Positions 34,310-62,777 of a DNA stretch of 64,000 nt are shown here, piece after piece (within the stretch, counting starts at the first letter, position 1; each line of letters opens with the position of its first letter). The notes under the pieces were generated by a model. It saw nothing but the letters and a program-made list of their open reading frames with translations, was not told the DNA's origin and made no database searches. This DNA comes from Hyaloperonospora brassicae. Its lineage: Eukaryota > Oomycota > Peronosporomycetes > Peronosporales > Peronosporaceae. A program made the translations under genes and the position numbers. The stretch lies in the NCBI GenBank assembly GCA_947650285.1, contig CANTFL010001470.1, positions 1-64,000 on the forward strand, given 5' to 3'.

Positions 34310-34439
34310 TCACCCCTCCCTTAACTGATAGTCACCGTGTGACTATCAAAAACTTTGTGGCCACCCGTTGGATACCAACGAGACGGGGAGTACTTGTTGG
34401 TCAGATTCATTCATTCTCACTTTGCCTCGCATAGTTAAC

Positions 34440-38900: not shown

Positions 38901-39968
38901 TGTCGAGTGCTTTTGTCCTTAGGCAACTCGCATGGCACGGATTCAGGGAACACATCTTTGAATTCGATCAAATCCTTATACAAAGGATTTGCCTGAAGCG
39001 ACCTCCAGGATTGAGATTCCTATCTCTTAATCCGAGTCTTCTCATCGATGACAGTTTCGTCCATCGATGAACTGCTGAGAACCCTCTCGGTCTCAGTATA
39101 CACCGTTGCCGATCGAATATCGGTAACGAACCCGTCCTCTGTGACGAGTATGCAGATCTTCTTGACTTTGCCACTGCGCAGATCACGCAAGAACCGTTTC
39201 TGTTTTAGCGTCGGCAATTGAGTTATCTCCGAAGTTAGTTTCGGAGGCACAACCAGATTAAGCGTGTAATCTCCTACGCTTGATCCATCAATAACCAAGA
39301 CATTTACTGTCTCGATTACTTCCTGGAATGTCACATCCACAGGGTCCAGGAGAGCTTTCTCCACAATGTAGTGATCATCTGCATTGTGTTCTTGTACAGT
39401 CGTGCTAACGACCGTACCACGAGTGAGACCATCGCACTCGCTCGTAGTACACCGACGTAGATGTGGGCGTTCCAAGACATTCTTCAGATCTTCATCTGAG
39501 GAACAAGTAGCAGGTATCGTAACTGATCGATGCTGCCAGCTCACCCTTGGCTCGTATCTCCTGAGACAAGATAGTCCTAGGATGACATCGAACTTGTCAT
39601 CCAGGTCGAGTACGATGAAACCATCATCGTACTGTTCATCTTTTAACGTGTAGTGGATTCCGACGACACGTTTTTTTACAGTGATCGATGAGCCTGTCGC
39701 TTGGCGCACCGCATTCTCGTTGGAGGGATCTCCCGCACCACGAAGTTGAAACTTTCTGCCTCTAGCGACTGGCGACGAACAAAATTGTTCGACGCCCCAC
39801 AGTCAACTAGGGCGCGAGGTGACAAGTCCTTTGTCACTTCCATATCAAGGTGATGAGAGACACCTCATCACCAAGTGCAGAGACACACAGGGACTGCGTG
39901 TCGGGAGTAACCTTCGTCAAGAGATTTGCAAATTCTCTTGATGTTGCTGAATCAGTAGGGTGCTCCGC
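35429..39968 (-). pseudogene. pol: Element E pol, broken
   Basis: Same lesions as D, including the RT 1-bp deletion near 38522. Visible differences from D are few: one base fewer near 36353 in the IN linker (GAGTTCC against GAGATTCC), plus isolated substitutions such as CAAGAACG for CAATAACG at 37169. The number of differences gives a rough age for the tandem duplication, which must be recent relative to the element's insertion. Confidence 0.88.
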
Positions 39969-39970
39969 CC

Positions 39971-41086
39971 CTACTGACCCCGACCATTTCCGGATGGTTG
40001 GTCTCGATGTTGAGGTTTTGCAACAGCATCGGACCCTCGCCCTCTAGTTCTTCTTACTGGTGGACGATTACTGCGCTCAGCACCGCGAGGTACTGAGCGG
40101 GGAATACTGCATTCATATGCGTAGTGTCCCAGTTTATGACAGCGATGACATCTCGCCGATCGCTTGTCATTCGCAGGCCTAGGTTTCTCGCCCTCAACAT
40201 TACAGAGGTCCGTTGGCTCTGGGCCTCCGACCGCTGATCGTCTCTGTGGACGAAAAGAAGTCAGCGTAGTGTGAGCCTGTCTCACACTAAAGTCTTCCTG
40301 CTCCGCAGCGAAGATTGCTTCAAAGAGCGTCTTAAGCTCTCCGCGGAACAGGTGGTCCCTGACGGGACCATCGGACAGCCCTTGAATGAATATTGTGATC
40401 AACACAAATTCACTCACAGGGTTCACTACCATGCAGATTGCAAGGTGGCGTATGTGCTGAGCGTAAGCGTGAACCTTACGATTACCCTGTTTGATTCCGA
40501 GGAGTTCAGATAGTGTCCAAAACTCTGCCCTGGGAGGCTCAAACGTCTCACTGAGCAGGGTCTTGAAGATATCTAACGAACCAAACACGTTTGGGTCGTG
40601 CAACTTGAGATTCAGGGCCCAATTCCTGGCGTCCCCTGCCAAGTACGACTGAGCAAATGCAACTTGCATTCGCTCATCGTCGATGCGACGGGCCTCGATG
40701 GCATCGTCGACTTCGACGAACCATCTTAACAGGGAGTCATCCTCGACTCCGTGATACTTGGAGATCTCTAGCTTTAGAGACCCCGGTCGACGCTCCCGTG
40801 TCGACTGCGAGGACTGAGACTGTCTCAGTTCTTCGTTCCGCTGGTTATCTTGTTGTTGCAACAAGATAACCTTCGCTCGCGACTCATCAAGTTCTCGTTG
40901 CAAAAACTTGCTAATGACGGAATGCTGCTGGTCTCTATCCCTTGTGGATAGCATGGCCCATATGGCTTCCTCACCAACGGTCGAGCTCATTCGTTGGATC
41001 GCACTCCATTCGATGTCACTCAAATGGGAGTAGCCTTCACGGGTTCCGTGAAATCTGCCGCCTTCGACATTGTGCAACATGTTCAT
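39971..41086 (-). CDS. gag: Element E gag, intact (371 residues)
   Basis: The encoded protein appears identical to that of D. Start ATG 41086, stop TAG at 39971-39973, CCHC knuckle near residues 313-326. The F copy differs at the N-terminus (DNVEGG for HNVEGG, KEAIWDM for EEAIWAM), which separates the D/E arm from the F/G arm. Confidence 0.88.
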   Translation of the reverse strand: MNMLHNVEGGRFHGTREGYSHLSDIEWSAIQRMSSTVGEEAIWAMLSTRDRDQQHSVISKFLQRELDESRAKVILLQQQDNQRNEELRQSQSSQSTRERRPGSLKLEISKYHGVEDDSLLRWFVEVDDAIEARRIDDERMQVAFAQSYLAGDARNWALNLKLHDPNVFGSLDIFKTLLSETFEPPRAEFWTLSELLGIKQGNRKVHAYAQHIRHLAICMVVNPVSEFVLITIFIQGLSDGPVRDHLFRGELKTLFEAIFAAEQEDFSVRQAHTTLTSFRPQRRSAVGGPEPTDLCNVEGEKPRPANDKRSARCHRCHKLGHYAYECSIPRSVPRGAERSNRPPVRRTRGRGSDAVAKPQHRDQPSGNGRGQ

Positions 41087-41136
41087 GTTAGGAGATGAGG
41101 TTGTGGTCCTTGGACGGACTAAACAGTGCTAACAGG

Positions 41137-41576
41137 TGTAACGGGGCACCGACGACTACGTACTGGTCAACCAGTACGGAGTTTACGATCACTGACTGTA
41201 GTGATAGTCAGTGCCCAGTCAGGTGTAGAACTATACAGAGGAAGGTAGAACGACAAAGGTGAAAGACTCTGGTCGTAGAAAAAGTAAAACTGTTATTAAT
41301 ATAATTAAGTTCTATAACTCTTGTATCTCTGTTTGTCCTGACTTAATTATACTAATGTAACTAAATGTATGATGACGTCTACTCACCACCCATTGCGCGC
41401 GTCTAGCAGCGATTGGTGGGTTGATATCATCACGATATCAACCAATGAGTAGACCCTTCGGCCATCTTCAACAATATCATCATGCTCTGTGATATTGTTA
41501 AAAGAATATTCAGCGTAATGGTTTTATTGTCATTATATCCTTAGTGACAATATCATGTAACGGGCTACCCCGTTAA
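41137..41576 (-). repeat. D/E array outer 5' LTR
   Basis: 440 bp. The U5 side matches the middle LTR. The outer U3 end differs over about 70 bp, and the terminal bases read GTTAAA instead of GTTACA. It shares CATGATATTGTCA with the facing F 5' LTR, where other copies read CATGAAATTGTCA. Confidence 0.88.
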
Positions 41577-42126: not shown

Positions 42127-42567
42127 TGTAACGGGGTAGCCCGTTACATGATATTGTCATTGAAACAATTTGACAATAAAGAATATTACGTCAAATATTC
42201 TTTTAACAATATCACAGAGCATGATGATATTGTTGAAGATGACCGAAGGGTCTACTCATTGGTTGATATTGTGATGATATCAACCCACCAATCGCTGCTA
42301 GACGCGCGCAATGGGTGGTGAGTAGACGTCATCATACATTTAGTTACATTAGTATAATTAAGTCAGGACAAACAGAGATACAAGAGTTATAGAACTTAAT
42401 TATATTAATAACTGTTTTACTTTTTCTACGACCAGAGTCTTTCACCTTTGTCGTTCTACCTTCCTCTGTATAGTTCTACACCTGACTGGGCACTGACTAT
42501 CACTACAGTCAGTGATCGTAAACTCCGTACTGGTTGACCAGTACGTAGTCGTCGGTGCCCCGTTACA
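42127..42567 (+). repeat. Element F 5' LTR
   Basis: 441 bp, perfect TGTAAC...GTTACA ends. Hairpins at 42127-42148 (9 bp), 42178-42203 (10 bp, AAAGAATATT/AATATTCTTT) and 42261-42285. A primer site TGTTAGCAC follows at 42570-42578. Confidence 0.95.
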
Positions 42568-42617
42568 CCTGTTAGCACTGTTTAGTCCGTCCAAGGACCA
42601 CAACCTCATCTCCTAAC

Positions 42618-43733
42618 ATGAACATGTTGGACAATGTCGAAGGCGGCAGATTTCACGGAACCCGTGAAAGCTACTCCCATTTGAGTGACATCGAATGGAG
42701 TGCGATCCAACGAATGAGCTCGACCGTTGGCAAAGAAGCAATCTGGGACATGCTATCCACAAGGGATAGAGACCAGCAGCATTCCGTCATTAGCAAGTTT
42801 TTGCAACGAGAACTTGATGAGTCGCGAGCGAAGGTTATCTTGTTGCAACAACAAGATAACCAGCGGAACGAAGAACTGAGACAGTCTCAGTCCTCGCAGT
42901 CGACACGGGAGCGTCGACCGGGGTCTCTAAAGCTAGAGATCTCCAAGTATCACGGAGTCGAGGATGACTCCCTGTTAAGATGGTTCGTCGAAGTCGACGA
43001 TGCCATCGAGGCCCGTCGCATCGACGATGAGCGAATGCAAGTTGCATTTGCTCAGTCGTACTTGGCAGGGGACGCCAGGAATTGGGCCCTGAATCTCAAG
43101 TTGCACGACCCAAACGTGTTTGGTTCGTTAGATATCTTCAAGACCCTGCTCAGTGAGACGTTTGAGCCTCCCAGGGCAGAGTTTTGGACACTATCTGAAC
43201 TCCTCGGAATCAAACAGGGTAATCGTAAGGTTCACGCTTACGCTCAGCACGTACGCCACCTTGCAATCTGCATGGTAGTGAACCCTGTGAGTGAATTTGT
43301 GTTGATCACAATATTTATTCAAGGGCTGTCCGATGGTCCCGTCAGGGACCACCTGTTCCGCGGAGAGCTTAAGACGCTCTTTGAAGCAATCTTCGCTGCG
43401 GAGCAGGAAGACTTTAGTGTGAGACAGGCTCACACTACGCTGACTTCTTTTCGTCCACAGAGACGATCAGCGGTCGGAGGCCCAGAGCCAACGGACCTCT
43501 GTAATGTTGAGGGCGAGAAACCTAGGCCTGCGAATGACAAGCGATCGGCGAGATGTCATCGCTGTCATAAACTGGGACACTACGCATATGAATGCAGTAT
43601 TCCCCGCTCAGTACCTCGCGGTGCTGAGCGCAGTAATCGTCCACCAGTAAGAAGAACTAGAGGGCGAGGGTCCGATGCTGTTGCAAAACCTCAACATCGA
43701 GACCAACCATCCGGAAATGGTCGGGGTCAGTAG
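42618..43733 (+). CDS. gag: Element F gag, intact (371 residues)
   Basis: ATG 42618 to TAG 43731-43733. Features as in D: Gln-rich coiled N-terminal region, capsid-like centre, CCHC knuckle C313/C316/H321/C326 and Arg/Gly-rich C-terminus. The first codons lie in a small hairpin (AACATG-AA-CATGTT). A 13-bp perfect stem with a CAA loop lies at 42833-42861 and encodes the ILLQQQDN stretch. The stop codon lies in the gag/pol hairpin (43728-43751). The pol frame that should follow is dead. Confidence 0.9.
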   Translation: MNMLDNVEGGRFHGTRESYSHLSDIEWSAIQRMSSTVGKEAIWDMLSTRDRDQQHSVISKFLQRELDESRAKVILLQQQDNQRNEELRQSQSSQSTRERRPGSLKLEISKYHGVEDDSLLRWFVEVDDAIEARRIDDERMQVAFAQSYLAGDARNWALNLKLHDPNVFGSLDIFKTLLSETFEPPRAEFWTLSELLGIKQGNRKVHAYAQHVRHLAICMVVNPVSEFVLITIFIQGLSDGPVRDHLFRGELKTLFEAIFAAEQEDFSVRQAHTTLTSFRPQRRSAVGGPEPTDLCNVEGEKPRPANDKRSARCHRCHKLGHYAYECSIPRSVPRGAERSNRPPVRRTRGRGSDAVAKPQHRDQPSGNGRGQ

Positions 43734-43781
43734 GGGCGGAGCACCCTACTGATTCAGCAACATCAAGAGAATTTGCAAATC

Positions 43782-46700
43782 TCTTGACGAAGGTTGCTCC
43801 CGACACGCAGTCCCTGTGTGTCTCTGCACTTGGTGATGAGGTGTCTCTCATCACCTTGATATGGAAGTGACAAAGGACTTGTCACCTCGCGCCCTAGTTG
43901 ACTGTGGGGCGTCGAACAATTTTGTTCGTCGCCAGTCGCTAGAGGCAGAAAGTTTCAACTTCGTGGTGCGGGAGATCCCTCCAACGAGAATGCGGTGCGC
44001 CAAGCGACAGGCGCATCGATCACTGTAAAAAAACGTGTCGTCGGAATCCACTACACGTTAAAAGATGAACAGTACGATGATGATTTCATCGTACTCGACC
44101 TGGATGACAAGTTCGATGTCATCCTAGGACTATCTTGTCTCAGGAGATACAAGCCAAGGGTGAGCTGGCAGCATCGATCAGTTACGATACCTGCTACTTG
44201 TTCCTCAGATGAAGATCTGAAGAATGTCTTGGAACGCCCACATCTACGTGGGTGTACTACGAGCGAGTGCGATGGTCTCACTCGTGGTACGGTCGTTAGC
44301 ACGACTGTACAAGAACACAATGCAGATGATCACTACATTGTGGAGAAAGCTCTCCTGGACCCTGTGGATGTGACATTCCAGGAAGTAATCGAGACAGTAA
44401 ATGTCTTGGTTATTGATGGATCAAGCGTAGGAGATTACACGCTTAATCTGGTTGTGCCTCCGAAACTAACTTCGGAGATAACTCAATTGCCGACGCTAGA
44501 ACCGAAACGGTTCTTGCGTGATCTGCGCAGTGGCAAAGTCAAGAAGATCTGCATACTCGTCACAGAGGACGGGTTCGTTACCGATATTCGATCGGCAACG
44601 GTGTATACTGAGACCGAGAGGGTTCTCAGCAGTTCATCGATGGACGAAACTGTCATCGATGAGAAGACTCGGATTAAGAGATAGGAATCTCAATCCTGGA
44701 GGTCGCTTCAGGCAAATCCTTTGTATAAGGATTTGATCGAATTCAAAGATGTGTTCCCTGAATCCGTGCCATGCGAGTTGCCTAAGGACAAAAGCACTCG
44801 ACACAAGATCGAGCTCAAGCCGGGCTCGAAGTACTGTGTCATGAGGCATTGGCCACTGCCTCGTGAACGAGTACTAGCGATCCACAAGCTCTTTACCGAT
44901 CGCTTAGCATCGGGCCATGTGAGGGAATCAACTTCTCCTCACAGCTCTCCGACCTTCTGTGTGCGAAAAGCCACAGGAGGATGGCGGATAGTGCACGCGT
45001 TCAACAAGTTGAATGCTGCAACGGTACCGGCTCAGACGCCGATACCAAGGAAGGACGTCATCATAGGTGGTATGTCAAAGAGTACCATCTTTTCAGCCAT
45101 GGATCTGATGGACGGATTCTATCAGATCCTCATGCGTGAACGGGACATACCGTACACAGCAGTGAGCACCCCCAGCGGTATGCTGTGGGAGTGGCTAGTG
45201 ATGCCACAGGGGCTGAGTAATGCCCCTGCTACTTTCAACAGATGTGTTACAAATATGTTGAGACCGGTGCGTGATTCCGCACCGAGTTACTTCGACGATG
45301 TGTTCGTCCATAGCCGGGATATGGACGGAAAGACGGACGTTGAAGTTCTCAGGACTCATGTTCGTCAGGTTCTTCAACTTATGCGCCAGCATAACTTTTA
45401 TGCCAATATCAAGAAGTGCATATTCGCGGTTAGCGAAATACCACTTCTTGGGTGCATTGTGGGTAAACACGGCGTACGCCCTGATCCCGAAAAGATCAAG
45501 GCAATCACCGACTGGCCAGTGCCAGTCGATGTCGAGGGACTTCGTAAGTTCCTTGGCTTAGCAGCGTTCTTACACAAGTACTCTCGCAACTACGCCGAGA
45601 TGACGGTACATCTTTCTTGAGTAAACAAGAAAGATGTGAAGTGGTCATGGAACGCTGACTGTCAGCTTTCCTTTAAAAGTATAAAGAAATGCTTGATGCA
45701 ATCGCCCATCTTGGCGATTGCAGATCAGAACAGACCATTTCATGTGGTCTGTGACGCCAGCGATTTTGCTATCGGCTGTGCGTTGATGCAGTATGACACA
45801 GACGTAGCAGAGCGCGTTGTCTGAAATCAATCGCGCCAGATGCAACCAGCTGAACGCAACTACCCAGTGCATGACAAGGAACTACTTGCCATGAAGTATG
45901 CACTGGCTAAGTTCCGGGTCTATCTCCTGGGATATAGACCGTTCATCGTCTATACGGACCATGCGTCACTACGCACGGCCGTAAACAGTCCACACCTCTC
46001 GCAAAGGATGACGAGTTGGCTGTCCTTCTTCGCGGAGTATAACTTCTCCGTGGAGTACAAGCCAGACGACTTAATGTCGTCGCTGATTCGTTATCACGTC
46101 GGCCCGACTTCGAACCAACGTCCCGAGTCAACAGTGAGGCTTTGCCCACTGTTGCGACCCTGTCCATCAGCGTGCCTTCGTCGCCTTTGCTCGACGACGT
46201 GCGGAAATCATACGCAGGAGACACGAATGTCCTCCGTTTGATGGGTCATCTTGCGAACCTATCCCGGAAATCCTTGTCGGGTTTGCCGGCTCTGTACCGT
46301 TCCTCTTTGGATCGGCACACGACTCGCAATGGCCTGCTATACTATACAGCAGTTACTGACGACACGCCTCGTGTCGTCGTTCCCGATCATGATGAATTGC
46401 GAATACGCATCATGTTCGAATGTCACGATGCGCCGTCTGGCGGGCACCGTGGCCGAGAAAAGACTTATCTCACGGTAAGTCTTAACTTTTATTAGCCCCG
46501 CCAGTATCAGTTTGTCCGCAAGTACATTCGTTATTGCGAGGTCTGTCAACGGGTGAAGCCTAGCCGTTCATCCCGTGCACCGTTACAACCTCTGCCGGTC
46601 CCGACAGAGTGTTGGGAGTCCGCGTCCATGGACTTTGTCTTCGGGTTCCCCGAAGACTCACAAGAATAATGGTATTCTTGTGTTTGTGGATCGTTTCAGC

Positions 46701-46901
46701 AAGATGATGCATCTTGCTGCAGTCTCTGAATCGATCACTGCACACGGCTGTGCGCGTGTCTTCATCGACACTGTGTTTCGACTCCACGGTTTACCCCGTG
46801 AACTCGTGTCCGACCTTGACCCTCGGTTCACGGCGGAGTTTTGGCAATCCGTGATTTGTTCTCTCGGAACACGATTGAAGATTTCCCCATCTGACCATCC
46901 C
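43782..46901 (+). pseudogene. pol: Element F pol, broken and cut by the gap
   Basis: The protease active-site Asp is at 43900 (DCGAS), and RT YFDD at 45288-45299. The RT frame is the least damaged here (299 codons, 44721-45620), keeping MLWEWLVM where A has a stop. Remaining lesions: two protease 1-bp deletions, TAG at 44682, TGA at 45618 and 45822, a private 1-bp deletion near 46070 in RNase H, and TAG at 46493 where a Trp is expected before PRQYQ. The sequence runs into Ns in the integrase core. Confidence 0.88.
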
Positions 46902-47001
46902 NNNNNNNNNNNNNNNNNNNNNNNNNNNNNNNNNNNNNNNNNNNNNNNNNNNNNNNNNNNNNNNNNNNNNNNNNNNNNNNNNNNNNNNNNNNNNNNNNNN
47001 N
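46902..47001. other. Assembly gap (100 N)
   Basis: Exactly 100 Ns, the conventional placeholder for a gap of unknown size. It hides the rest of element F (integrase, chromodomain, antisense frame) and the first ~37 bases of the next LTR. Distances across it are not real. Confidence 0.98.
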
Positions 47002-47405
47002 AACAATTTGACAATAAAGAATATTACGTCAAATATTCTTTTAACAATATCACAGAGCATGATGATATTGTTGAAGATGACCGAAGGGTCTACTCATTGG
47101 TTGATATTGTGATGATATCAACCCACCAATCGCTGCTAGACGCGCGCAATGGGTGGTGAGTAGACGTCATCATACATTTAGTTACATTAGTATAATTAAG
47201 TCAGGACAAACAGAGATACAAGAGTTATAGAACTTAATTATATTAATAACTGTTTTACTTTTTCTACGACCAGAGTCTTTCACCTTTGTCGTTCTACCTT
47301 CCTCTGTATAGTTCTACACCTGACTGGGCACTGACTATCACTACAGTCAGTGATCGTAAACTCCGTACTGGTTGACCAGTACGTAGTCGTCGGTGCCCCG
47401 TTACA
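47002..47405 (+). repeat. Element G 5' LTR, truncated by the gap
   Basis: The last 404 bases of a 441-bp LTR matching F, ending GCCCCGTTACA. If F and G are a true tandem it is the shared middle LTR. Confidence 0.9.
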
Positions 47406-47455
47406 CCTGTTAGCACTGTTTAGTCCGTCCAAGGACCACAACCTCATCTCCTAAC

Positions 47456-48571
47456 ATGAACATGTTGGACAATGTCGAAGGCGGCAGATTTCACGGAACC
47501 CGTGAAAGCTACTCCCATTTGAGTGACATCGAATGGAGTGCGATCTAACGAATGAGCTCGACCGTTGGCAAAGAAGCAATCTGGGACATGCTATCCACAA
47601 GGGATAGAGACCAGCAGCATTCCGTCATTAGCAAGTTTTTGCAACGAGAACTTGATGAGTCGCGAGCGAAGGTTATCTTGTTGCAACAACAAGATAACCA
47701 GCGGAACGAAGAACTGAGACAGTCTCAGTCCTCGCAGTCGACACGGGAGCGTCGACCGGGGTCTCTAAAGCTAGAGATCTCCAAGTATCACGGAGTCGAG
47801 GATGACTCCCTGTTAAGATGGTTCGTCGAAGTCGACGATGCCATCGAGGCCCGTCGCATCGACGATGAGCGAATGCAAGTTGCATTTGCTCAGTCGTACT
47901 TGGCAGGGGACGCCAGGAATTGGGCCCTGAATCTCAAGTTGCACGACCCAAACGTGTTTGGTTCGTTAGATATCTTCAAGACCCTGCTCAGTGAGACGTT
48001 TGAGCCTCCCAGGGCAGAGTTTTGGACACTATCTGAACTCCTCGGAATCAAACAGGGTAATCGTAAGGTTCACGCTTACGCTCAGCACGTACGCCACCTT
48101 GCAATCTGCATGGTAGTGAACCCTGTGAGTGAATTTGTGTTGATCACAATATTTATTCAAGGGCTGTCCGATGGTCCCGTCAGGGACCACCTGTTCCGCG
48201 GAGAGCTTAAGACGCTCTTTGAAGCAATCTTCGCTGCGGAGCAGGAAGACTTTAGTGTGAGACAGGCTCACACTACGCTGACTTCTTTTCGTCCACAGAG
48301 ACGATCAGCGGTCGGAGGCCCAGAGCCAACGGACCTCTGTAATGTTGAGGGCGAGAAACCTAGGCCTGCGAATGACAAGCGATCGGCGAGATGTCATCGC
48401 TGTCATAAACTGGGACACTACGCATATGAATGCAGTATTCCCCGCTCAGTACCTCGCGGTGCTGAGCGCAGTAATCGTCCACCAGTAAGAAGAACTAGAG
48501 GGCGAGGGTCCGATGCTGTTGCAAAACCTCAACATCGAGACCAACCATCCGGAAATGGTCGGGGTCAGTAG
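47456..48571 (+). pseudogene. gag: Element G gag with one nonsense codon
   Basis: Identical in plan to F, but codon 31 is TAA (47546-47548) where F has CAA. Everything after it is open to TAG 48569-48571, with an internal ATG at 47552 that could start a 339-residue product. The CCHC knuckle is intact. This is the main coding difference between F and G. Confidence 0.88.
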
Positions 48572-48621
48572 GGGCGGAGCACCCTACTGATTCAGCAACA
48601 TCAAGAGAATTTGCAAATCTC

Positions 48622-51600
48622 TTGACGAAGGTTGCTCCCGACACGCAGTCCCTGTGTGTCTCTGCACTTGGTGATGAGGTGTCTCTCATCACCTTGATAT
48701 GGAAGTGACAAAGGACTTGTCACCTCGCGCCCTAGTTGACTGTGGGGCGTCGAACAATTTTGTTCGTCGCCAGTCGCTAGAGGCAGAAAGTTTCAACTTC
48801 GTGGTGCGGGAGATCCCTCCAACGAGAATGCGGTGCGCCAAGCGACAGGCGCATCGATCACTGTAAAAAAACGTGTCGTCGGAATCCACTACACGTTAAA
48901 AGATGAACAGTACGATGATGATTTCATCGTACTCGACCTGGATGACAAGTTCGATGTCATCCTAGGACTATCTTGTCTCAGGAGATACAAGCCAAGGGTG
49001 AGCTGGCAGCATCGATCAGTTACGATACCTGCTACTTGTTCCTCAGATGAAGATCTGAAGAATGTCTTGGAACGCCCACATCTACGTGGGTGTACTACGA
49101 GCGAGTGCGATGGTCTCACTCGTGGTACGGTCGTTAGCACGACTGTACAAGAACGCAATGCAGATGATCACTACATTGTGGAGAAAGCTCTCCTGGACCC
49201 TGTGGATGTGACATTCCAGGAAGTAATCGAGACAGTAAATGTCTTGGTTATTGATGGATCAAGCGTAGGAGATTACACGCTTAATCTGGTTGTGCCTCCG
49301 AAACTAACTTCGGAGATAACTCAATTGCCGACGCTAGAACCGAAACGGTTCTTGCGTGATCTGCGCAGTGGCAAAGTCAAGAAGATCTGCATACTCGTCA
49401 CAGAGGACGGGTTCGTTACCGATATTCGATCGGCAACGGTGTATACTGAGACCGAGAGGGTTCTCAGCAGTTCATCGATGGACGAAACTGTCATCGATGA
49501 GAAGACTCGGATTAAGAGATAGGAATCTCAATCCTGGAGGTCGCTTCAGGCAAATCCTTTGTATAAGGATTTGATCGAATTCAAAGATGTGTTCCCTGAA
49601 TCCGTGCCATGCGAGTTGCCTAAGGACAAAAGCACTCGACACAAGATCGAGCTCAAGCCGGGCTCGAAGTACTGTGTCATGAGGCATTGGCCACTGCCTC
49701 GTGAACGAGTACTAGCGATCCACAAGCTCTTTACCGATCGCTTAGCATCGGGCCATGTGAGGGAATCAACTTCTCCTCACAGCTCTCCGACCTTCTGTGT
49801 GCGAAAAGCCACAGGAGGATGGCGGATAGTGCACGCGTTCAACAAGTTGAATGCTGCAACGGTACCGGCTCAGACGCCGATACCAAGGAAGGACGTCATC
49901 ATAGGTGGTATGTCAAAGAGTACCATCTTTTCAGCCATGGATCTGATGGACGGATTCTATCAGATCCTCATGCGTGAACGGGACATACCGTACACAGCAG
50001 TGAGCACCCCCAGCGGTATGCTGTGGGAGTGGCTAGTGATGCCACAGGGGCTGAGTAATGCCCCTGCTACTTTCAACAGATGTGTTACAAATATGTTGAG
50101 ACCGGTGCGTGATTCCGCACCGAGTTACTTCGACGATGTGTTCGTCCATAGCCGGGATATGGACGGAAAGACGGACGTTGAAGTTCTCAGGACTCATGTT
50201 CGTCAGGTTCTTCAACTTATGCGCCAGCATAACTTTTATGCCAATATCAAGAAGTGCATATTCGCGGTTAGCGAAATACCACTTCTTGGGTGCATTGTGG
50301 GTAAACACGGCGTACGCCCTGATCCCGAAAAGATCAAGGCAATCACCGACTGGCCAGTGCCAGTCGATGTCGAGGGACTTCGTAAGTTCCTTGGCTTAGC
50401 AGCGTTCTTACACAAGTACTCTCGCAACTACGCCGAGATGACGGTACATCTTTCTTGAGTAAACAAGAAAGATGTGAAGTGGTCATGGAACGCTGACTGT
50501 CAGCTTTCCTTTAAAAGTATAAAGAAATGCTTGATGCAATCGCCCATCTTGGCGATTGCAGATCAGAACAGACCATTTCATGTGGTCTGTGACGCCAGCG
50601 ATTTTGCTATCGGCTGTGCGTTGATGCAGTATGACACAGACGTAGCAGAGCGCGTTGTCTGAAATCAATCGCGCCAGATGCAACCAGCTGAACGCAACTA
50701 CCCAGTGCATGACAAGGAACTACTTGCCATGAAGTATGCACTGGCTAAGTTCCGGGTCTATCTCCTGGGATATAGACCGTTCATCGTCTATACGGACCAT
50801 GCGTCACTACGCACGGCCGTAAACAGTCCACACCTCTCGCAAAGGATGACGAGTTGGCTGTCCTTCTTCGCGGAGTATAACTTCTCCGTGGAGTACAAGC
50901 CAGGACGACTTAATGTCGTCGCTGATTCGTTATCACGTCGGCCCGACTTCGAACCAACGTCCCGAGTCAACAGTGAGGCTTTGCCCACTGTTGCGACCCT
51001 GTCCATCAGCGTGCCTTCGTCGCCTTTGCTCGACGACGTGCGGAAATCATACGCAGGAGACACGAATGTCCTCCGTTTGATGGGTCATCTTGCGAACCTA
51101 TCCCGGAAATCCTTGTCGGGTTTGCCGGCTCTGTACCGTTCCTCTTTGGATCGGCACACGACTCGCAATGGCCTGCTATACTATACAGCAGTTACTGACG
51201 ACACGCCTCGTGTCGTCGTTCCCGATCATGATGAATTGCGAATACGCATCATGTTCGAATGTCACGATGCGCCGTCTGGCGGGCACCGTGGCCGAGAAAA
51301 GACTTATCTCACGGTAAGTCTTAACTTTTATTAGCCCCGCCAGTATCAGTTTGTCCGCAAGTACATTCGTTATTGCGAGGTCTGTCAACGGGTGAAGCCT
51401 AGCCGTTCATCCCGTGCACCGTTACAACCTCTGCCGGTCCCGACAGAGTGTTGGGAGTCCGCGTCCATGGACTTTGTCTTCGGGTTCCCCGAAGACTCTC
51501 ACAAGAATAATGGTATTCTTGTGTTTGTGGATCGTTTCAGCAAGATGATGCATCTTGCTGCAGTCTCTGAATCGATCACTGCACACGGCTGTGCGCGTGT

Positions 51601-53140
51601 CTTCATCGACACTGTGTTTCGACTCCACGGTTTACCCCGTGAACTCGTGTCCGACCTTGACCCTCGGTTCACGGCGGAGTTTTGGCAATCCGTGATTTGT
51701 TCTCTCGGAACACGATTGAAGATTTCCCCATCTGACCATCCCGAAACAGATGATCAGACGGAACGTGCAAATCGTGTCCTCTTAGAAATTCTTCGAGGAT
51801 ACGTGTACTCCTTTTCGAGTTGGAGTGAGCTCTTGCCGGCGGTCGAATTTGCCATCAACAACTCCGTGCATGCGTCAACATCGCATACACCGTTCTACGC
51901 GAATGGCTTACGCCACCCAAGTATTCCCGCCCTTATACAGAGTGGCGCTGGGTTAAAGGGGGAGGGAATCGCTCGAGCAAAGCCGTTTTGGCTCTTGTTC
52001 ATCACGTATCATCGCACATGCCGATACGTTCGACGTCGATGTCGATAATATCGACATCGAAGAAGTTGATCTTAGCAGTAGCAATGACGCTGTTACTACT
52101 TCAGACAATGATGACGATGCTGGTATATTCAGCATCGTCAACGATTATTCCAGCGAGGAAGAAGACAACCTCGCTGAAGAAGAGAAGGATCTCTTAGCAG
52201 TGCGCACGAAGAGCACTGAAAGACAAAAGAACGAGTCAGCAGAGAACTTCCTGCTGACTCGAGAGGCGGTAGTCCGTTTCGTTCAGGACTCCATCGCAAA
52301 TGCGGTGGACCGCCAGAAACGGAACGCAGACAAGAATGGAAGAGCAAATGTTCTTTCGTTTAAAGTTAACGACCTAGTACTACTGTCTATGGTAAACTTA
52401 CCTGGACATGCAGTCACTAGTGTCGGCAGTAGTAAACTACTGCCGAAATACATCGGGCCATTTCGTGTGTTTTGCACCTCAATGGCAATGCATACACGAT
52501 TGATTTGCCCCGCAGGATGTGCACGCATCCTACGTTCTATGTTGGTCGTCTCCGCCCGTACTATCAGTACGAGGTCTCTTGCGAGAACGGAGACAGATGG
52601 CACGCTCGAGAATCCTTTAACAGATTCTTGTGATCACGGACCAAACACTCAAGTTGGTCCTTCAGTGACGCAGTCTCGCGACGAGCCGCCTCTAGCTTGT
52701 CGCGCAAACGATGCTTCTCGCGTTCTCTCTCGACTTGAAATAGCGCGAAATCTGATCGGTCCTTCTTCCGATCGGTACGGAGACGTCGTACGGTCGCCGG
52801 CAAGTCGTGCCGACGATCGTATTCGTGATCGACGTTCACCCTCAACTCGGACAGGTAAAGCTCATGGTTACTCAAAGTCTCCTGCAGGCCCGGCGGTTGA
52901 GCCGGACCTTGTCTTTCCACCGCCACCGGAACCACTGGTGGATGCTCACGGTGGTCGACGCTTTCACGTGGGGCTTATCTTGAGCCACCGCGTGAAGAAT
53001 GGGGTCGGACAAGTTACTTTGTCCGCTGGCGTGGGTATCCACCATCGTATGACAGCTGGGAACCTCGGTCCCAGCTGATGGCTGTCGTTGAAGGTCTCGT
53101 CCACCAGTATGACGAGACTAATCCGATAGGTCCGAGGGCT
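48622..53140 (+). pseudogene. pol: Element G pol, broken
   Basis: The most complete Pol of the A/D-G subfamily. Protease Asp at 48738, RT YFDD at 50126-50137. Integrase D at 51470, D at 51653 and E at 51761 are all present, and a GPF tail is near 52440. The shared lesions remain: two protease deletions, TAG near 49520, TGA near 50456 and 50660, TAG near 51332. RNase H runs on to the integrase HHCC in one frame (50678-51334). An acidic Asp/Glu stretch links the integrase core to the tail. Chromodomain remnants at 52950-53130 are split between frames. Confidence 0.88.
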
Positions 53141-54103
53141 CATCGGTAAACACGCGCTTTTGGCGCTTGTCGAAGGATTGCAAGTTTGCAATCGCGTCCC
53201 GCATCTCAGCCGAGATGTGTGCCCTTCCCCAGGGCGAACTTACGGAATACACGTCCCTATGTGCACGTTGCGAGTTGTCAACACAACTCGTACAAGGATC
53301 TCCCCTAGTGAGGCAAGGAATGTCTGACTCCCTCGACAAACAGTGCAATCGGTACCTTGCACCGGTTGGCGTTCGCTTTTCGAACCTGAGGCGTGTCGCC
53401 TCAAGTTTCTTGAGCCACCCTTCTCGTCCAAAATTCTTTACGTTTTGGACGAACGCGTTCCATGCCGCCAAAAGCTAGGCCTTGTAACGCTTTTGGTTGC
53501 CATTGTACCATCGATGCTTGAAGAAAGCATCGAGATAAAATTCTTCCTCAGCACAAAAGGTCTTCGCGCTGGAACTCAAGCCATGAAGCTCACTCGCATC
53601 GAATAAAGGTATTCGATGGTGTTGATTTGTCTCGTGAGACAAGCTATTGATGAGCTGTTCAGGCAAACGCCACGGCTTGAGCTCACCACGCTTCAAAGTG
53701 GTTCCTGTTTCGGTACCACGGTTATCAGTATGACGACGGCTCGCACCATCGTCGTATCGCTCGTGCGAAGGTGCACGAGCTGATCGCGGTGATGAGTAAT
53801 CATACTCATCACCATATCAATCATCACTGCTGAACAGACTGTGACGCATGTCGCGAGTCCGTACGTTCGGCAGGTCTCTTAATGAACGAGGCAACGCAGG
53901 TGAACGCGATGCCTCTAAAGGCTTTTCCGAGTCAGAGTAGCTGACCCCTAACTCGGGGTCATTGTGTGCAGAAGTGCGATACCACATGCGCCTGCAGCGA
54001 CACCTGCTGCAGGATGATAACGAGCAGCAGACGACGAGTCGTCTGCCGCAGAGGCGGGCGCAGCAACAGGCTGTGTCGTCTTTGGGTCACCCCACATAGA
54101 CAT
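52564..54103 (-). pseudogene. Element G antisense accessory ORF, broken
   Basis: Starts at ATG 54103 (MSMWGD). It carries the same early frameshift and the same TAG after KRYKA (53475-53477) as D and E, then a core to 53118 and a coiled coil in an offset frame (52935-52564). The C-x7-C-x2-C cluster is preserved. Shared lesions with D/E show descent from one already broken copy. Confidence 0.7.
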
Positions 54104-54234
54104 GTTAACTATGCGAGGCAAAGTGAGAATGAATGAATCTGACCAACAAGTACTCCCCGTCTCGTTGGTATCCAACGGGTGGCCACAAAGTTTTCGATAG
54201 TCACACGGTGACTATCAGTTAAGGGGAGGGGTGA

Positions 54235-54675
54235 TGCAACGGGGTAGCCCGTTACATGAAATTGTCATTGAAACAATTTGACAATAAAGAATATTACGTC
54301 AAATATTCTTTTAACAATATCACAGAGCATGATGATATTGTTGAAGATGACCGAAGGGTCTACTCATTGGTTGATATCGTGATGATATCAACCCACCAAT
54401 CGCTGCTAGACGCGCGCAATGGGTGGTGAGTAGACGTCATCATACATTTAGTTACATTAGTATAATTAAGTCAGGACAAACAGAGATACAAGAGTTATAG
54501 AACTTAATTATATTAATAACAGTTTTACTTTTTCTACGACCAGAGTCTTTCACCTTTGTCGTTCTACCTTCCTCTGTATAGTTCTACACCTGACTGGGCA
54601 CTGACTATCACTACAGTCGGTGATAGTAAACTCCGTACTGGTTGACCAGTACCTAGTTGTCGGTGCTTCGTTTTA
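54235..54675 (+). repeat. F/G array outer 3' LTR
   Basis: 441 bp with eroded ends: it starts TGCAAC for TGTAAC and ends CGTTTTA for CGTTACA. Its U5 variants match the outer 3' LTR of D/E. Confidence 0.9.
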
Positions 54676-55874
54676 ATGGCGATGGCGCGATTACGTGATG
54701 GAAGGCATGCTCAACGTGGATGACGAGTCTAAAGGCATGTTGCTGGTGTGATCAACTGCCTATGTGCTACGAGGAAGACATTTGACCAGATACAAAGCAG
54801 CAAAATTGAAGTTAGACGGCTCTCAAAGAATTGCTTGACGGTGAAGAGTGACTACCGTGCTGTCAAAAAAGTATTGAATGGAGAGCCTGAACGAAAAACG
54901 GCAGGTCAACAGCAAGATGATGCCAGCGATAGCGCGGTAGACGTCTGTGAAGAACAGGAAGATGTCCATGCATCTCCGTTATTAGCAAGGCACAGGACTG
55001 GTCACAAGCGTGCAAAAAGCCAGGGCGTGGCAGAGACCGACGAGCGATTGTTGCTGAACTCGGCGGAGAATGGAAAAAGCAGGCACCATATGTCATGTTT
55101 AGTGATGGGTCCGATCGAGTTGAAGCCGTACAGCCCAGGAAATCCGCTCGGGTATCTTGAGGTTAGATTACAGGCTATAGAGGTCGGTTCCAGGTTGTGG
55201 TGTTTGTCATTCGTGCATCTAGTGCATCTGGTGTACATCTTGACGATCAGATGAAAGAAGCTGCCAAACTGTAGCCGTGAGAAACATCAGGGCCAGTATC
55301 AGCGGGCCGACGTAAACTCAAGCCAAGCAGCGAGTGATACGACCGCCGCACTCAGCATCAGCGGGCCAACGAGAGCTAAAGCTAAGCAGCGAGTATACGA
55401 CCGCCGTACTCCGCATCCATTGGCGCTTACAGTGCAAGCTAGTCACTCCTCGCCGCGACTGGAGAATTTGGCTGGGGCGTTCGGGCTGAATCGATCATGC
55501 AAAATGCGTTTGTCATGCTTACAGGTAAGACCATCTCGCCAGTGACCATGCACTTGATCAATGGCGTATACACGTCTCCTGTACCGCGCACGGATGAGAG
55601 CGTAATCATTAACCAAATTTTGTTGATTTTTTGCGACATTTTTCAGGAACAAGTGGCACGCCATGTCTTCTTTCGGGGGTACCCGCGTCTACTTATCCGC
55701 GGTCCTGTCCGGCTGCAACGTGACCGGTGGCACTCTACGGCGGGAGACCTCGTCGATCGGCGCGTTGGACTGGACCGTCGCGTATTGGATTGGGAAGATG
55801 ACCTTCACACAAAAATGAAAGAGATGGTAAAGAACTTAAATTGTACACCCCCTAGAAGCGGCTGACCTCGGTGG
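54676..55874. other. Spacer between G and C
   Basis: A 168-codon frame (54748-55254, plus) and a 122-codon frame (55497-55865, plus) are present, but neither resembles a protein I know. The first is Lys/Arg-rich at its start with a hydrophobic end. A 59-bp tandem duplication lies at 55298-55415. I call no gene. Confidence 0.4.
55298..55415 (+). repeat. 59-bp tandem duplication
   Basis: Two units start ATCAGCGGGCC at 55298 and 55357, about 85% identical, with AAGCAGCGAGT and ACGACCGCCG common to both. No function evident. Confidence 0.75.
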
Positions 55875-56298
55875 TGCAACAGGGCAGCCCGTTACATGGA
55901 AATTGTCATTTGAGAGATAATGACAATAAAGAATATTATGTTGAATATTCTTTTAACAATATCACCAATAGTGGTGATTTTGATGGGTCGACCAAAGAGT
56001 CTGCTCATTGGTTGATATCTTGACGATATTAACCCATCAATCGTCGCAAGACGCGCGCAAGACGCGTGCAATGGGTGGTGAGTAGATGTCGTCATACATT
56101 CAGTTAGATTAGAATAATTAAGTTAAGTCAAACAGAGGGACAGTGGTTAAAGACTTAATTATATTAATATTGTAGTTCTACTTTTCGCTAAGACAGTGTT
56201 GCCTCTGTCTTATCTACAGCTTCCTCGGTTGCCTCGTGTACGCTTGTCGGTGCACGATACCCTTGCGTTAAGTTCACGAAAGGGTGTGCCCCGTTACA
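55875..56298 (+). repeat. Element C 5' LTR
   Basis: 424 bp, TGCAAC...GTTACA. The U3 hairpin at 55902-55927 reads ATTGTCATT/AATGACAAT. The 3' LTR has a different 9-bp pair at the same place. Confidence 0.93.
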
Positions 56299-56300
56299 TC

Positions 56301-56309
56301 TGGTAGCAC
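56301..56309 (+). other. Element C primer-binding site
   Basis: TGGTAGCAC, 2 bp inside the LTR. The first eight bases fit the acceptor end (..TGCTACCA) of initiator-Met tRNA seen in many eukaryotes. Identity of the tRNA in this organism is inferred. Confidence 0.6.
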
Positions 56310-56342
56310 TTCGTAGTCCTTCCAAGGACCACAGCATCCAAC

Positions 56343-57497
56343 ATGAACATGTTGGATGATGGAGAAAACTTTCACGACACGCGTGAAGGGTTTAACCATT
56401 TGAGTGACATCGAATGGAGTGCGGTAGAACGAATGAGTTCTACCGTAGGCGAGGTCGCTATTAGCGCCATGTTGGAGTCTCTATACAGAGACCAACAACA
56501 TGCCGCTATAGCCAAGTTCATTCAAAATGAACTTGTCGCCGAAAGGGATAAAGTAGCCTTGTTTCACCAGTAAGGCTCTCAACAGGCCGAGCATTTGAGA
56601 GAACTCGGTGCTCAACAGACAGAGCTGTTGAGACAGCAGCAATTCCATGCTGCTGTGGGCGGGACGACACATGCGCGTCGTCCCGAAGTCATGAAAGTTG
56701 ACACCTCCAAGTACAGTGGAGTCCCGGAGGACTCCCTGTTATTGTGGTTCGTCGAGCTCGACAGAGCCTTGAAGGCACGTCGTGTCAACGATGAGGAAAT
56801 GAAACTCACATTTTCTCAGACCCACTTGGCCGGACGTGCCAAAACTTGGGCCTTAGGGCTCGAGAGTAGCGACCCAAATGTGTTTAGGTCGCTAGATGAC
56901 TTCAAGTCCCGGCTCAGACAAACGTTTGAGCTGCCACGAGCTGAGTTCAGAGCTCGTTCAGAGCTACTGAAACTCAAGCAGGATAAGCGTGATGTGCACG
57001 CTTACGCTCAACATATACGACTCCTCGCGAGTAGTGTAACTTCCAACCCGGTAAATGAACACACGTTGATTACGGTGTTCATGCAAGGGATCGCAGAAGG
57101 GCCCGTCAGGAGCCACCTGTTCCGCCTAGAGCTTAATACGCTGGAAGAAGCGATATCAGTCGCGGAACAGGAAGACTTCAGCATGAGACAGGCTCATGCT
57201 AGCTCAAACTCTTATCGTCCACCGAGACGACAAGAGATCGGAGATCCAGAACCAATGGACCTCTGTTATGTTGAGAGCGAGAGACCTCGCTCTTCAAACA
57301 ACAAGCGAATGCAGAAATGCAATCGATGTCAGAAGTTAGGGCACTTCGCACATGAGTGTAGTGCTCCACGCCCAGTACCAAACAGTACTGAGCGAAATGG
57401 ACGACCATTTGCCAGAAAGGGCAATGGGCGTGGCTCCAGCGCTGCTGCGAAGCCGCAACAGCGAGACGGACCATCAAAAAATGGACGGGGTCAGTAG
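56343..57497 (+). pseudogene. gag: Element C gag with one internal stop
   Basis: Starts at ATG 56343, inside an 11-bp hairpin. A TAA at 56571-56573 interrupts it. The frame is then open to TAG 57495-57497, giving 300 codons that include the capsid region and a CCHC knuckle (CNRCQKLGHFAHEC, near 57320). Alignment with the intact F gag is clear over the whole length. The last codons form the slippery site of the frameshift signal. Confidence 0.88.
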
Positions 57498-57515
57498 GGG
57501 CGGAGCGCCCTACTG
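57476..57515 (+). promoter_or_regulatory. Probable -1 ribosomal frameshift signal at gag/pol
   Basis: The slippery heptamer A AAA AAT (57476-57482) is in the correct gag phase. A 9-base spacer follows, then a hairpin: CAGTAGGGGCG pairs with CGCCCTACTG (57492-57502 with 57506-57515, one bulged G). The gag stop codon is in the stem. The protease frame is -1 relative to gag and open through the overlap. A and D-G keep the hairpin but have CGGAAAT for the heptamer. Confidence 0.75.
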
Positions 57516-60500: not shown

Positions 60501-61700
60501 GCTCGAGCAAAGCCGTTTTGGCTCTTGCTCATCACGTGTCGACGCTAACGTCGTCACGTATGATGCCGATGTCGATCAGGTCGACATCGATGGAGAAAAT
60601 CACCGCAATAATTACGACAAAGCTATTATTGATTTAGATGATGATGACGATGCTGGTATATTCAGCATCGTCAACGATTATTCCAGCGAGGAAGAAGACA
60701 ACCTCGCTGAAGAAGAGAAGGATCTCTTAGCAGTGCGCACGAAGAGCACTGAAAGACAAAAGAACGAGTCAGCAGAGAACTTCCTGCTGACTCGAGAGGC
60801 GGTAGTCCGTTTCGTTCAGGACTCCATCGCAAATGCGGTGGACCGCCAGAAACGGAACGCAGACAAGAATGGAAGAGCAAATGTTCTTTCATTTAAGGTT
60901 AACGACCTAGTACTACTGTCTACGGTAAACCTACCTGGACACGCAGTCACTAGTGTCGGCAGTAGTAAACTACTGCCGAAGTACATTGGGCCATTTCGAG
61001 TGTTGCATCGCAAGGGCAATGCATACACACTCGAGTTGCCACGTAAGATGCGCACGCATCCTATGTTTTACGTGGGGAGGCTCAGGCCGTACTGTCAGTA
61101 CTAGCCTTCTTCTTTCGATGAAGATAGCCCCCACGTTCAAGAACATCCATCAAGTTCTTGCGTTCGCGCTCCAGACGATCCGTCTAGTCGCGCAGATAAG
61201 ATACCTCGGAACTCAACCGAGATATTTCCCCGCGAGCTGTCGCCAGCTCGCCGGAAAGGAAGCGGACATCCCGCTCGACCTGAAGCTGCGCTGTGGCATA
61301 ATCGGCGCGATCCCTCTCCCGATCAGCCTCGTGATCCTTGCGGTTCTTCCGCACGGTATCAGTCAAAGCGTAGCGCTAGTAGCGCTCGTGCTTCAAGTCA
61401 TGGCGCAATTCATCGATTGCGCGATCCATCTCGTAAGGGTCGAGATGGTGAACCGAATCATCTGGAGGAGGTCTCTCCTCCTCCACCACATCTTTTGGTG
61501 GATGCTCACGGTGGTCGACGATTTCTAGTGGAGCGTATCCTAAATCACCGTGACGATTCATGATTAAGGACGAGCTACCTCGTCCAGTGGCGGGGGTATC
61601 CACCATCGTATGACAGCTGGGAACCCCGCTCTCAGCTGTTGATGGATGTTGAAGGTCTCGTCCACCAGTATGACGAGACCCATCCGATAGGTCCGAGGGC
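57503..61700 (+). pseudogene. pol: Element C pol with large RT deletion and chromodomain
   Basis: The protease is intact from the frameshift to TAA 58664: DCGASNNF near 57665, DVILGLHWL near 57885. The frame continues to 58795, where the RT fingers and palm are missing; the sequence resumes after YFDD and out of frame. RNase H (58837-59271, then a frameshift to 59217-59699) and integrase (59923-60330) follow. The third integrase acid is Lys (AAA at 60292), as in A. The integrase tail is intact (60733-61104; YIGPFRVLHRKG, MFYVGRLRPY). Near 61520-61690 a chromodomain is readable (GGRRFLVERIL, YLVQWRGYPPSYDSWEP), with one frame change or stop. TGA at 60328 and TAG at 60394 are shared with A. Confidence 0.88.
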
Positions 61701-62682: not shown

Positions 62683-62777
62683 GTTAACTATGCGAGGTCA
62701 GGTTGAGTAATGAACGGAACTGACCCAACAAGTGCTCCCTGTCCCAATGGTGCCCAACGAGTGGCCGCCATATTTTT

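What the first reader, a model, noticed from the sequence alone, without database searches (positions are those of the whole stretch)
42127..54675. Retroelements built from dense short hairpins in coding and non-coding parts alike
Perfect, closely spaced inverted repeats occur every few tens of bases. Examples (stem/loop): 42127-42148 9/4; 42178-42203 10/6; 42833-42861 13/3; 43832-43855 9/6; 44072-44094 9/5; 44713-44735 9/5; 45608-45637 12/6; 45697-45722 10/6; 46358-46378 9/3. In D: 27461-27486 11/4, 27741-27763 9/5, 27822-27850 10/9, 28081-28098 8/2. In C: 56335-56358 11/2, 56513-56535 10/3, 58298-58325 10/8, 59591-59614 10/4. With equal base use, a stem of 9 or more with loop 0-12 is expected about once in 20 kb. 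I saw no comparable density in the RlmN-like gene. The pattern crosses gag, pol, LTRs and the antisense gene, so no single protein explains it. Possible causes are genome-wide ordered RNA structure (packaging, RT pausing, evasion of RNA silencing) or repeated template switching during reverse transcription.
Basis: partly seen in the sequence, partly recalled or inferred. Interest (0 to 1): 0.92.

Follow-up and report, generated by a model that had tools for sequence, protein, structure and literature searches.

The report
Retrotransposons written as short perfect hairpins
A group of jumping genes in a downy-mildew-like organism is packed with short, exactly self-complementary stretches that share the DNA with its protein genes, far beyond chance and not seen in the other parts of the genome sampled, which suggests that copying or selection during their life cycle keeps turning their sequence into hairpins.

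Summary
All 17 listed stems are exact. The window holds 192 perfect stems of 9 or more (loop 0-12) against 3.05 in shuffles; 84 are distinct. They lie in Ty3/gypsy elements; host 1-7172 has none. Other host and retroelement stretches sampled are at or slightly above shuffle level. Synonymous-codon shuffles do not explain them: the L029 pol ORF has 53 stems of 8 or more against 1.1. Stem length is a family trait: 7-10 bp in the main and L031/L033 families, 5-6 bp in L032 and window family E. Positions are shared within a family, hardly between families; pairs change in a compensating way. The signal is equal on both strands without significant G-U preference, against ordinary RNA structure. Some loops are inverted between copies: 486 AA, 54 TT, 1 other among 541; three other loci showed none in the rows listed. 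I favour arm-to-arm strand switching by this clade's reverse transcriptase, filtered by protein selection (0.45); both-strand selection is a close rival.

The parts
7173..14906 (+). Ty3/gypsy copy B, main clade, LTRs 7173-7613 and 14466-14906; 33 stems >=9 (counted to 14802)
   Evidence: repeats, LTR match and counts, tblastn
26600..34310 (-). Ty3/gypsy copy D1 (A family), in tandem with D2, the LTR near 33.9-34.3 kb being shared; 34 stems >=9 (counted from 26501)
34313..41575 (-). Ty3/gypsy copy D2 (A family); 29 stems >=9 (counted 34311-41519)
42127..46901 (+). Ty3/gypsy copy A1 (A family), cut by the N gap 46902-47001; 18 stems >=9
47002..54672 (+). Ty3/gypsy copy A2 (A family), left LTR cut by the gap (47002-47402), right LTR to 54672; 32 stems >=9
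55870..63241 (+). Ty3/gypsy copy C (main clade, L029-like), LTRs 55870-56304 and 62808-63241; 41 stems >=9 (counted 55901-63250)
42618..43733 (+). gag ORF of A1 (Retrotrans_gag, Ty3_capsid; zinc knuckle slightly below the Pfam cut-off)
   Evidence: Pfam
43995..44684 (+). protease part of pol, A1 (RVP_2)
   Evidence: Pfam
44721..45620 (+). reverse transcriptase part of pol, A1 (RVT_1)
   Evidence: Pfam
50678..51334 (+). RNase H and integrase zinc-binding part of pol, A2
   Evidence: Pfam
51392..52048 (+). integrase core part of pol, A2 (rve, slightly below the Pfam cut-off)
   Evidence: Pfam
42833..42861 (.). example perfect hairpin 13/3 in gag
45608..45637 (.). hairpin 12/6 whose loop AGTAAA is the reverse complement of the loop TTTACT of L020; the in-frame stop that ends ORF 44721-45620 falls on the first loop base
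48565..48590 (.). hairpin 9/8 at the end of gag, seen in the main clade, L031/L033 and L032
59727..59749 (.). hairpin 10/3 of C with loop AGG, inverted against CCT in 88 of the first 100 listed genome copies (530 in all)
16600..23100 (-). Ty3/gypsy family E (RT 53% identical): 1 stem >=9, but an excess of 5-7-bp stems with loops 1-6

Best explanation
One clade of Ty3/gypsy retrotransposons in a Peronosporaceae-like oomycete carries, laid over its protein code, many short Watson-Crick-perfect inverted repeats; stem-loops with stems >=8 cover 29%, 27%, 15% and 10% of L029, L030, L031 and L033. SHOWN: excess over all shuffles tried; no comparable excess in the host and other retroelement stretches sampled; family-specific stem size; near-isostability; compensatory pair changes; broken stems in a dead copy; equal signal on both strands; inverted loops at several loci. 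INFERRED: the hairpins are made Watson-Crick-perfect during the retrotransposition cycle, most likely because this clade's reverse transcriptase, on meeting a weak hairpin, switches strand and copies one arm from the other (quasi-palindrome correction), now and then also copying the loop from the complementary strand and so inverting it. Purifying selection on gag and pol discards damaging conversions, which leaves mostly synonymous hairpins. Stem size would reflect what each family's enzyme can open or switch on. Dead copies no longer pass through the enzyme and decay.
For: Clade limit: other retroelement loci L001-L008, distant Ty3 L022 and most host loci are at shuffle level (short stems checked for L001-L005, L022 and seven host loci); in 20 evenly spaced 10-kb samples, clade-like stretches hold 150 stems >=8 in 18.8 kb, the rest 62 in 181.2 kb (0.34 per kb; shuffles of the whole samples 0.21). 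Strand symmetry: MFE z of 150-nt windows sense/antisense -5.42/-5.32 (L029), -2.11/-2.35 (L031), -1.34/-1.53 (L033), -2.06/-2.27 (L032). G-U v A-C in one-mismatch stems of intact elements 23 v 13 (p 0.13) plus 30 transversions. Compensatory pairs L030/L029: 18 and 26 (the two directions) against 0.5 and 0.9 expected double changes. Loop inversions: 541 genome copies of one 11-bp stem carry AA 486, TT 54, anything else 1; TT occurs on 7 flank types, each also seen with AA; AGG/CCT, TTTACT/AGTAAA, CCTCG/CGAGG and GGAGCG/CGCTCC at other loci, the last with an outer mismatch matched as well. Decay: of 87 gap-free L030 hairpins, 51 are broken by 1-2 pairs and 4 by >=3 in dead A2.
Against: Hairpins strongly broken in a relative differ in both arms in 54 of 60 cases, where one-event copying predicts one arm (pairs not independent). 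Compensatory changes are not clustered within hairpins. No inverted loop among the listed rows at three of five loci scanned genome-wide: capped lists from 721 and 422 places, and all 43. One-mismatch stems are in excess (33 in L029 v about 2.7 in shuffles), so correction is far from complete. Density is alike in coding and non-coding parts of L029 and L031 and higher in coding in L032, although random conversions should be purged from coding DNA. Inversions could also arise after insertion in host DNA: 0 of 204 loop comparisons among the dead A-family copies show one, but only 35 of these differed at two or more places. For AA/TT the complement equals the reverse complement, so that control cannot separate them. 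Recombination between copies could spread TT over flank types.
Confidence: 0.45

Rival explanations
1. Selection for local Watson-Crick hairpins that must form in both strands (sense RNA and antisense RNA or cDNA), for example to keep small-RNA guides and their targets from pairing, or to keep single-stranded cDNA compact. Compensating point mutations maintain the hairpins; loop inversions are a side effect.
For: Compensatory changes about 30 times above independence in L030/L029 (about 4-10 times in pairs with dead copies) and isolated; hairpins built by synonymous choice, also in conserved protein stretches; stems near-isostable, GC falling with length (rho -0.19, -0.25, -0.67); density alike in coding and non-coding parts of L029 and L031; turnover of positions with constant size class.
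Against: Needs a both-strand pressure felt by one clade but not by the other retroelements sampled in the same genome; no small-RNA data; does not itself explain inverted loops; in two recently diverged intact pairs stems were not clearly more conserved than outside once ascertainment is allowed for (L029/L037 about equal; L031/L036 about half, on 6 changes).
Confidence: 0.33
2. Selection for sense-strand genomic RNA structure (genome-scale ordered RNA structure, packaging or translation control), as in some RNA viruses.
For: Predicted folding energy of L029 is 47% beyond shuffles (-59.8 v -40.8 kcal/mol per 150 nt); loops A-rich on the sense strand in L029-L031 (pooled with L033 0.30 v 0.24); G-U 23 v A-C 13 in intact elements leans the right way.
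Against: Folding is as strong on the antisense strand in all four families; transversion mismatches (30) outnumber G-U (23); in homologous L029/L030 pairs G-U 19 v A-C 29; L033 and L032 loops are not A-rich.
Confidence: 0.14
3. A host-wide mutational bias (replication-fork template switching) makes short inverted repeats everywhere and the elements merely show it.
For: Known process (PMC8794818, abstract and first part of Results read); host stretches outside the clade have 0.34 stems >=8 per kb against 0.21 in shuffles, a slight excess.
Against: Clade-like stretches have 7.98 per kb; eight other retroelement loci are at shuffle level; dead copies of the same elements have broken stems.
Confidence: 0.03
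4. Chance, base composition, codon use, or copy duplication.
For: Copies in the window are near-identical (84 of 192 distinct).
Against: Single intact elements exceed dinucleotide and synonymous shuffles by more than tenfold; several families show it.
Confidence: 0.01

Closest known systems
Coding palindromes in mitochondrial genes of Nematomorpha (PMC6649704; abstract and Discussion read)
   Same: Perfect inverted repeats inside genes whose arms encode conserved protein; gained and lost between species; template switching is discussed there.
   Different: There: mitochondrial, up to 284 bp, and no excess of imperfect repeats. Here: a nuclear retrotransposon clade, mostly 5-13 bp, many per element, with an excess of one-mismatch stems.
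Template-switch-made RNA hairpins (PMC8794818; abstract and first part of Results read)
   Same: Perfect stems, compensatory changes and loop inversion as a diagnostic pattern.
   Different: There: events inferred in rRNA and microRNA genes, ascribed to DNA replication. Here: dense, found in one retroelement clade, with a family-specific stem length.
Genome-scale ordered RNA structure of RNA viruses (recalled; search listing only)
   Same: Folding energy beyond shuffles along the whole genome.
   Different: Strand-symmetric and without significant G-U preference here.
Yeast Ty3 genomic RNA structure (PMC11381356; seven passages read)
   Same: Ty3/gypsy element with dispersed structured regions.
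   Different: The passages read speak of SHAPE-supported structured regions and single hairpins, not of tiling by perfect hairpins; not compared by computation.

Membership tests
Ty3/gypsy LTR retrotransposon | gag, then protease, RT, RNase H and integrase in that order | tested here: met
   Pfam hits (integrase core slightly below its cut-off), order by tblastn; relatives with long pol ORFs
Ty3/gypsy LTR retrotransposon | long terminal repeats | tested here: met
   matching ends: B 442 alignment columns, A2 401 (cut by the gap), C 435
Genome-scale ordered RNA structure | folding energy well beyond dinucleotide shuffles along the genome | tested here: met
Genome-scale ordered RNA structure | structure belongs to the RNA strand (sense stronger than antisense, G-U tolerated) | tested here: not met
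   sense equals antisense in four families; G-U 23 v A-C 13 v transversions 30, p 0.13 for the first two
Template-switch hairpins | loop inversion with flanks unchanged | tested here: met
   but none in the listed rows at three further loci (capped lists from 721 and 422 places, and 43 of 43)
Template-switch hairpins | one arm rewritten from the other in one event; clustered compensatory changes | tested here: not met
   54 of 60 differ in both arms; clustering not above permutation
Nematomorph-type coding palindromes | arms encode conserved protein | tested here: met
   amino-acid conservation of stem codons near that outside in L029, L035, L033 (.46/.49.52/.51.57/.49), lower in L031 (.43/.51) and L032 (.33/.46)
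Nematomorph-type coding palindromes | nearly all repeats perfect, no excess of imperfect ones | tested here: not met
   one-mismatch stems in excess

The most novel reading that the evidence does not exclude
A lineage of reverse transcriptases rewrites its own genome into self-complementary hairpins of lineage-specific size, so that the element's sequence is a compromise between its proteins and a palindrome-making replication enzyme: a second, enzyme-imposed code over a whole mobile genome.
Probability: 0.4. Interest if true: 0.95.

Novelty: new variant of a known kind. Interest (0 to 1): 0.86.

Why it matters
A whole autonomous retrotransposon whose coding and non-coding sequence is tiled with perfect short hairpins of lineage-specific length was not found described in eight searches of the held library (listings only, several of them capped; subscription papers and preprints are not held). 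It gives hundreds of natural copies in one genome in which one can watch hairpins being flipped, compensated and lost, and so makes directly testable the old question whether perfect stems are made by selection or by template switching. If the enzyme does it, it is a reverse transcriptase with an unusual copying mode; if selection does, there is an unknown both-strand pressure on mobile elements, perhaps from silencing.

Tried and rejected
Chance, composition and codon use: rejected. Genome-wide bias: rejected as the main cause, though host stretches have a slight excess (0.34 v 0.21 stems >=8 per kb). Regular spacing of hairpins: not found, gap CV about 1. A common loop motif: none seen by eye in the loops listed; TCT loops recur near the start of L032. 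Stem length limited by the codons: not strictly, extension by one pair was synonymously possible in 82 of 162 stems of four families (background 53-65%, so somewhat rarer than chance in L029 and L032). A captured host gene to show hairpin gain on a known ancestor: the antisense ORF has at least 116 matches (2976 candidates, 116 scored), taken to be element-borne but not checked one by one. DNA of relatives in other collections: none found in viral contigs or genome contigs, so other oomycetes could not be tested. Five-prime/three-prime arm asymmetry of transition mismatches (82 v 45): many of the copies are related; left unexplained. L034 shows 22 six-bp stems with loop 0-6 against 7.4, partly LTR duplicates and hairpins also seen in L032; its folding z is -0.13.

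Power and limits: most pairwise counts use related copies and both directions, so they are not independent; only L029, L031, L033, L036 and L037 served as intact elements in the G-U test; L034 and L022 are the only distant Ty3 controls; the 20 background stretches were chosen by even spacing on large contigs, not at random; the short-stem control took 5 of the 8 retroelement loci and 7 of the 20 stretches as host, plus L022.
Full report
CHECK OF THE OBSERVATION. The 17 inverted repeats are exact at the stated coordinates. The window has 192 perfect stems >=9 with loop 0-12; 20 dinucleotide shuffles in 1-kb blocks give 3.05 +- 1.6; stems >=10 are 105 against 0.55. The density is zero in host 1-7172 and high in every main-clade element. 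Because the window holds several near-identical copies, only 84 of the 192 stem-loops are distinct, so I tested single elements elsewhere in the genome.

WHAT CARRIES IT. The carriers are Ty3/gypsy elements: gag, protease, RT, RNase H and integrase domains in order, with LTRs. The genome has 100.56 Mb in 898 contigs. Its RlmN-like protein is 87% identical to a Peronospora effusa and 89% to Phytophthora proteins, and pol of L029 (residues 200-700) is 83% identical to a P. effusa protein, so the organism is Peronosporaceae-like. Copies with long open frames exist: pol frames of 1339 (L029), 1795 (L031, L036), 1940 (L033), 1606 (L032) and at least 1620 codons (L037, open at the end of the stretch).

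EXCESS IN INTACT ELEMENTS. In the L029 pol ORF, stems of 8/9/10/11/12+ number 20/17/8/5/3; synonymous-codon shuffles give 0.9/0.2/0/0/0. L037 pol: 65 stems >=8 v 1.8 (maximum of 50 shuffles 9); gag of L037, L029 and L031: 16, 11 and 10 v 0.5, 0.3 and 0.4. L031 and L033 pol have 35 and 19 stems >=8 against 1.6 each.

A SIZE CLASS PER FAMILY. Exact stem lengths in L029: 7 bp 31, 8 bp 33, 9 bp 29, 10 bp 15, against 4.0, 1.1, 0.3, 0 in shuffles; L031 has a peak at 8 bp with 30 against 0.7. L032 has few long stems but 170 five-bp and 72 six-bp stems against 57 and 15, the excess lying at loops 0-6 (three-nt loops 67 against 5.7); window family E is alike. RT identity to copy A1: L029 91%, L031 65%, L033 66%, L032 62%, E 53%, L022 and L034 26%. 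L022 is at shuffle level; L034 carries an excess of 6-bp stems, part of it LTR duplicates and hairpins also found in L032. The excess of loops in the long-stem families ends near 12-13 nt.

LIMITS. Eight other retroelement loci (L001-L008) and 15 of 20 evenly spaced 10-kb samples lack the dense pattern (short stems checked in part of them). In those 20 samples, stretches similar to the clade hold 150 stems >=8 in 18.8 kb; the rest hold 62 in 181.2 kb, 0.34 per kb, slightly above the 0.21 per kb of shuffles.

OVERLAP WITH PROTEIN CODE. Stem codons are about as conserved between families as others in L029, L035 and L033, and less in L031 and L032. Codon alignments show hairpins formed by synonymous choice, e.g. 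HPTFYVG encoded with an A-T pair in L033 and a G-C pair in L031 at the same stem position. Density is alike in coding and non-coding parts of L029 (12.3 v 11.3 per kb) and L031 (7.0 v 7.3), lower in coding in L033 (3.3 v 10.9) and higher in L032 (12.6 v 8.7, 6-bp threshold). In L029 52 of 301 synonymously possible 8-bp centres are realised.

POSITION AND TURNOVER. Of 53 hairpin centres in L029 pol, 27 coincide with one of the 28 of its relative L035 (rotation mean 0.9). Between families: L029/L031 3 (rotation mean 1.1, maximum 5), L029/L033 4 (0.5, maximum 3), L031/L033 6 of 35 (0.4, maximum 3), L029/L032 3 (1.9), L031/L032 2 (1.3). Number and size are kept, places mostly not.

COMPENSATION, DECAY, STABILITY. 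Between L030 and L029 18 and 26 pairs (two directions, not independent) changed on both sides and still pair, against 0.5 and 0.9 expected double changes; they are not clustered in hairpins; in pairs with dead copies the excess is about 4-10 fold. Of 87 gap-free L030 hairpins 51 are broken by 1-2 pairs and 4 by three or more in A2, a dead copy. Recently diverged intact pairs: L031/L036 6 changes in 2037 stem sites against 1.1% outside; L029/L037 9 of 1694 and 19 of 1819 against 1.6-1.8%; since stems are chosen as perfect in one copy, about half the outside rate per direction is expected without constraint. Stem length and GC are inversely related (rho -0.19 in 239 distinct main-clade stems, -0.25, p 0.07, in L031, -0.67 in L033), and stem stabilities are narrower than permuted (L031 with DNA parameters p 0.06).

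WHICH STRAND. Predicted folding is equally strong on both strands in four families. One-mismatch stems of intact elements: G-U 23, A-C 13 (p 0.13), transversions 30. Changed pairs between L030 and L029: G-U 19, A-C 29. Loops are A-rich on the sense strand in L029-L031 but not in L033 or L032. Ordinary selection on sense RNA should favour G-U strongly; it does not show.

LOOP INVERSIONS. Between homologous hairpins with flanks in the same orientation, some loops are reverse complements: TTTACT/AGTAAA, CCTCG/CGAGG, GGAGCG/CGCTCC (here the outer mismatch is matched as well), AA/TT, CCT/AGG. In a systematic scan of 1541 distinct loop pairs (808 with two or more differences) 14 rows at six loci fit the reverse complement, two of these loci weakly; the reverse-only control gave one locus, and the single complement-only row is one that the reverse complement fits too. 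Two-nt loops: 4 of 6 differing pairs fit, at three loci, though for AA/TT complement and reverse complement coincide and at one of these loci the stem is broken in the partner copy. Genome-wide one 11-bp stem has 486 AA, 54 TT and 1 other loop in 541 copies, TT on seven flank types. A second has AGG in 3 of the first 100 listed of 530 copies, on two flank types, beside 88 CCT and 9 others. Against this, three further loci showed no inverted loop in the rows listed: capped lists from 721 and 422 places, and all 43. L031/L033: 0 of 50 pairs; dead A-family copies: 0 of 204, 35 of them with two or more differences.

JUDGEMENT. The facts call for an agent that works on both strands, needs Watson-Crick pairs, acts while elements replicate, and has a size preference that follows the element family. 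Copying of one arm from the other by the element's reverse transcriptase fits most of these and the inverted loops; isolated compensations, scarce one-arm rewrites, abundant imperfect stems and equal density in coding DNA fit selection better. A mixture is possible. I put 0.45 on copying, 0.33 on both-strand selection, 0.14 on RNA structure.

LITERATURE. Eight library searches on oomycete, downy mildew, retrotransposon, hairpin, palindrome, inverted repeats, template switching and ordered RNA structure (listings only) returned no title or abstract start that describes this. Closest papers: PMC6649704 (abstract and Discussion read), PMC8794818 (abstract and first part of Results), PMC11381356 (passages).

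Noticed in passing
window 46902-47001: 100-N assembly gap between copies A1 and A2; the copies before and after 42 kb lie head to head as ~99% identical inverted arms, which may be local amplification or assembly.
   Followed up: partly
window 13326-14381 (-) and the 3' part of related elements: Long antisense ORF of the elements (351 aa here; open frames up to about 610 codons elsewhere), at least 116 matches in the genome, no Pfam hit.
   Followed up: partly
window 48565-48590; L032 1467-1494: Hairpin CAGTAGG-(GC-rich loop)-CCTACTG at the gag end is shared across families that otherwise share few hairpins; pol lies in the -1 frame relative to gag in L029, L031, L032, L033, so it may serve frameshifting.
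   Followed up: partly
window 45618-45620: The in-frame stop shared by A-family copies coincides with the first base of the inverted loop AGTAAA.
   Followed up: partly
L029 689-2112: Tandem duplication with an 805-bp offset inside the 3' region.
   Followed up: no
L032 169-320: Row of near-tandem 5-bp hairpins with TCT loops near the start of the stretch.
   Followed up: no
several elements: Transition mismatches in stems have G or C on the 5' arm and A or T on the 3' arm more often than the reverse (82 v 45); many of the copies are related.
   Followed up: no
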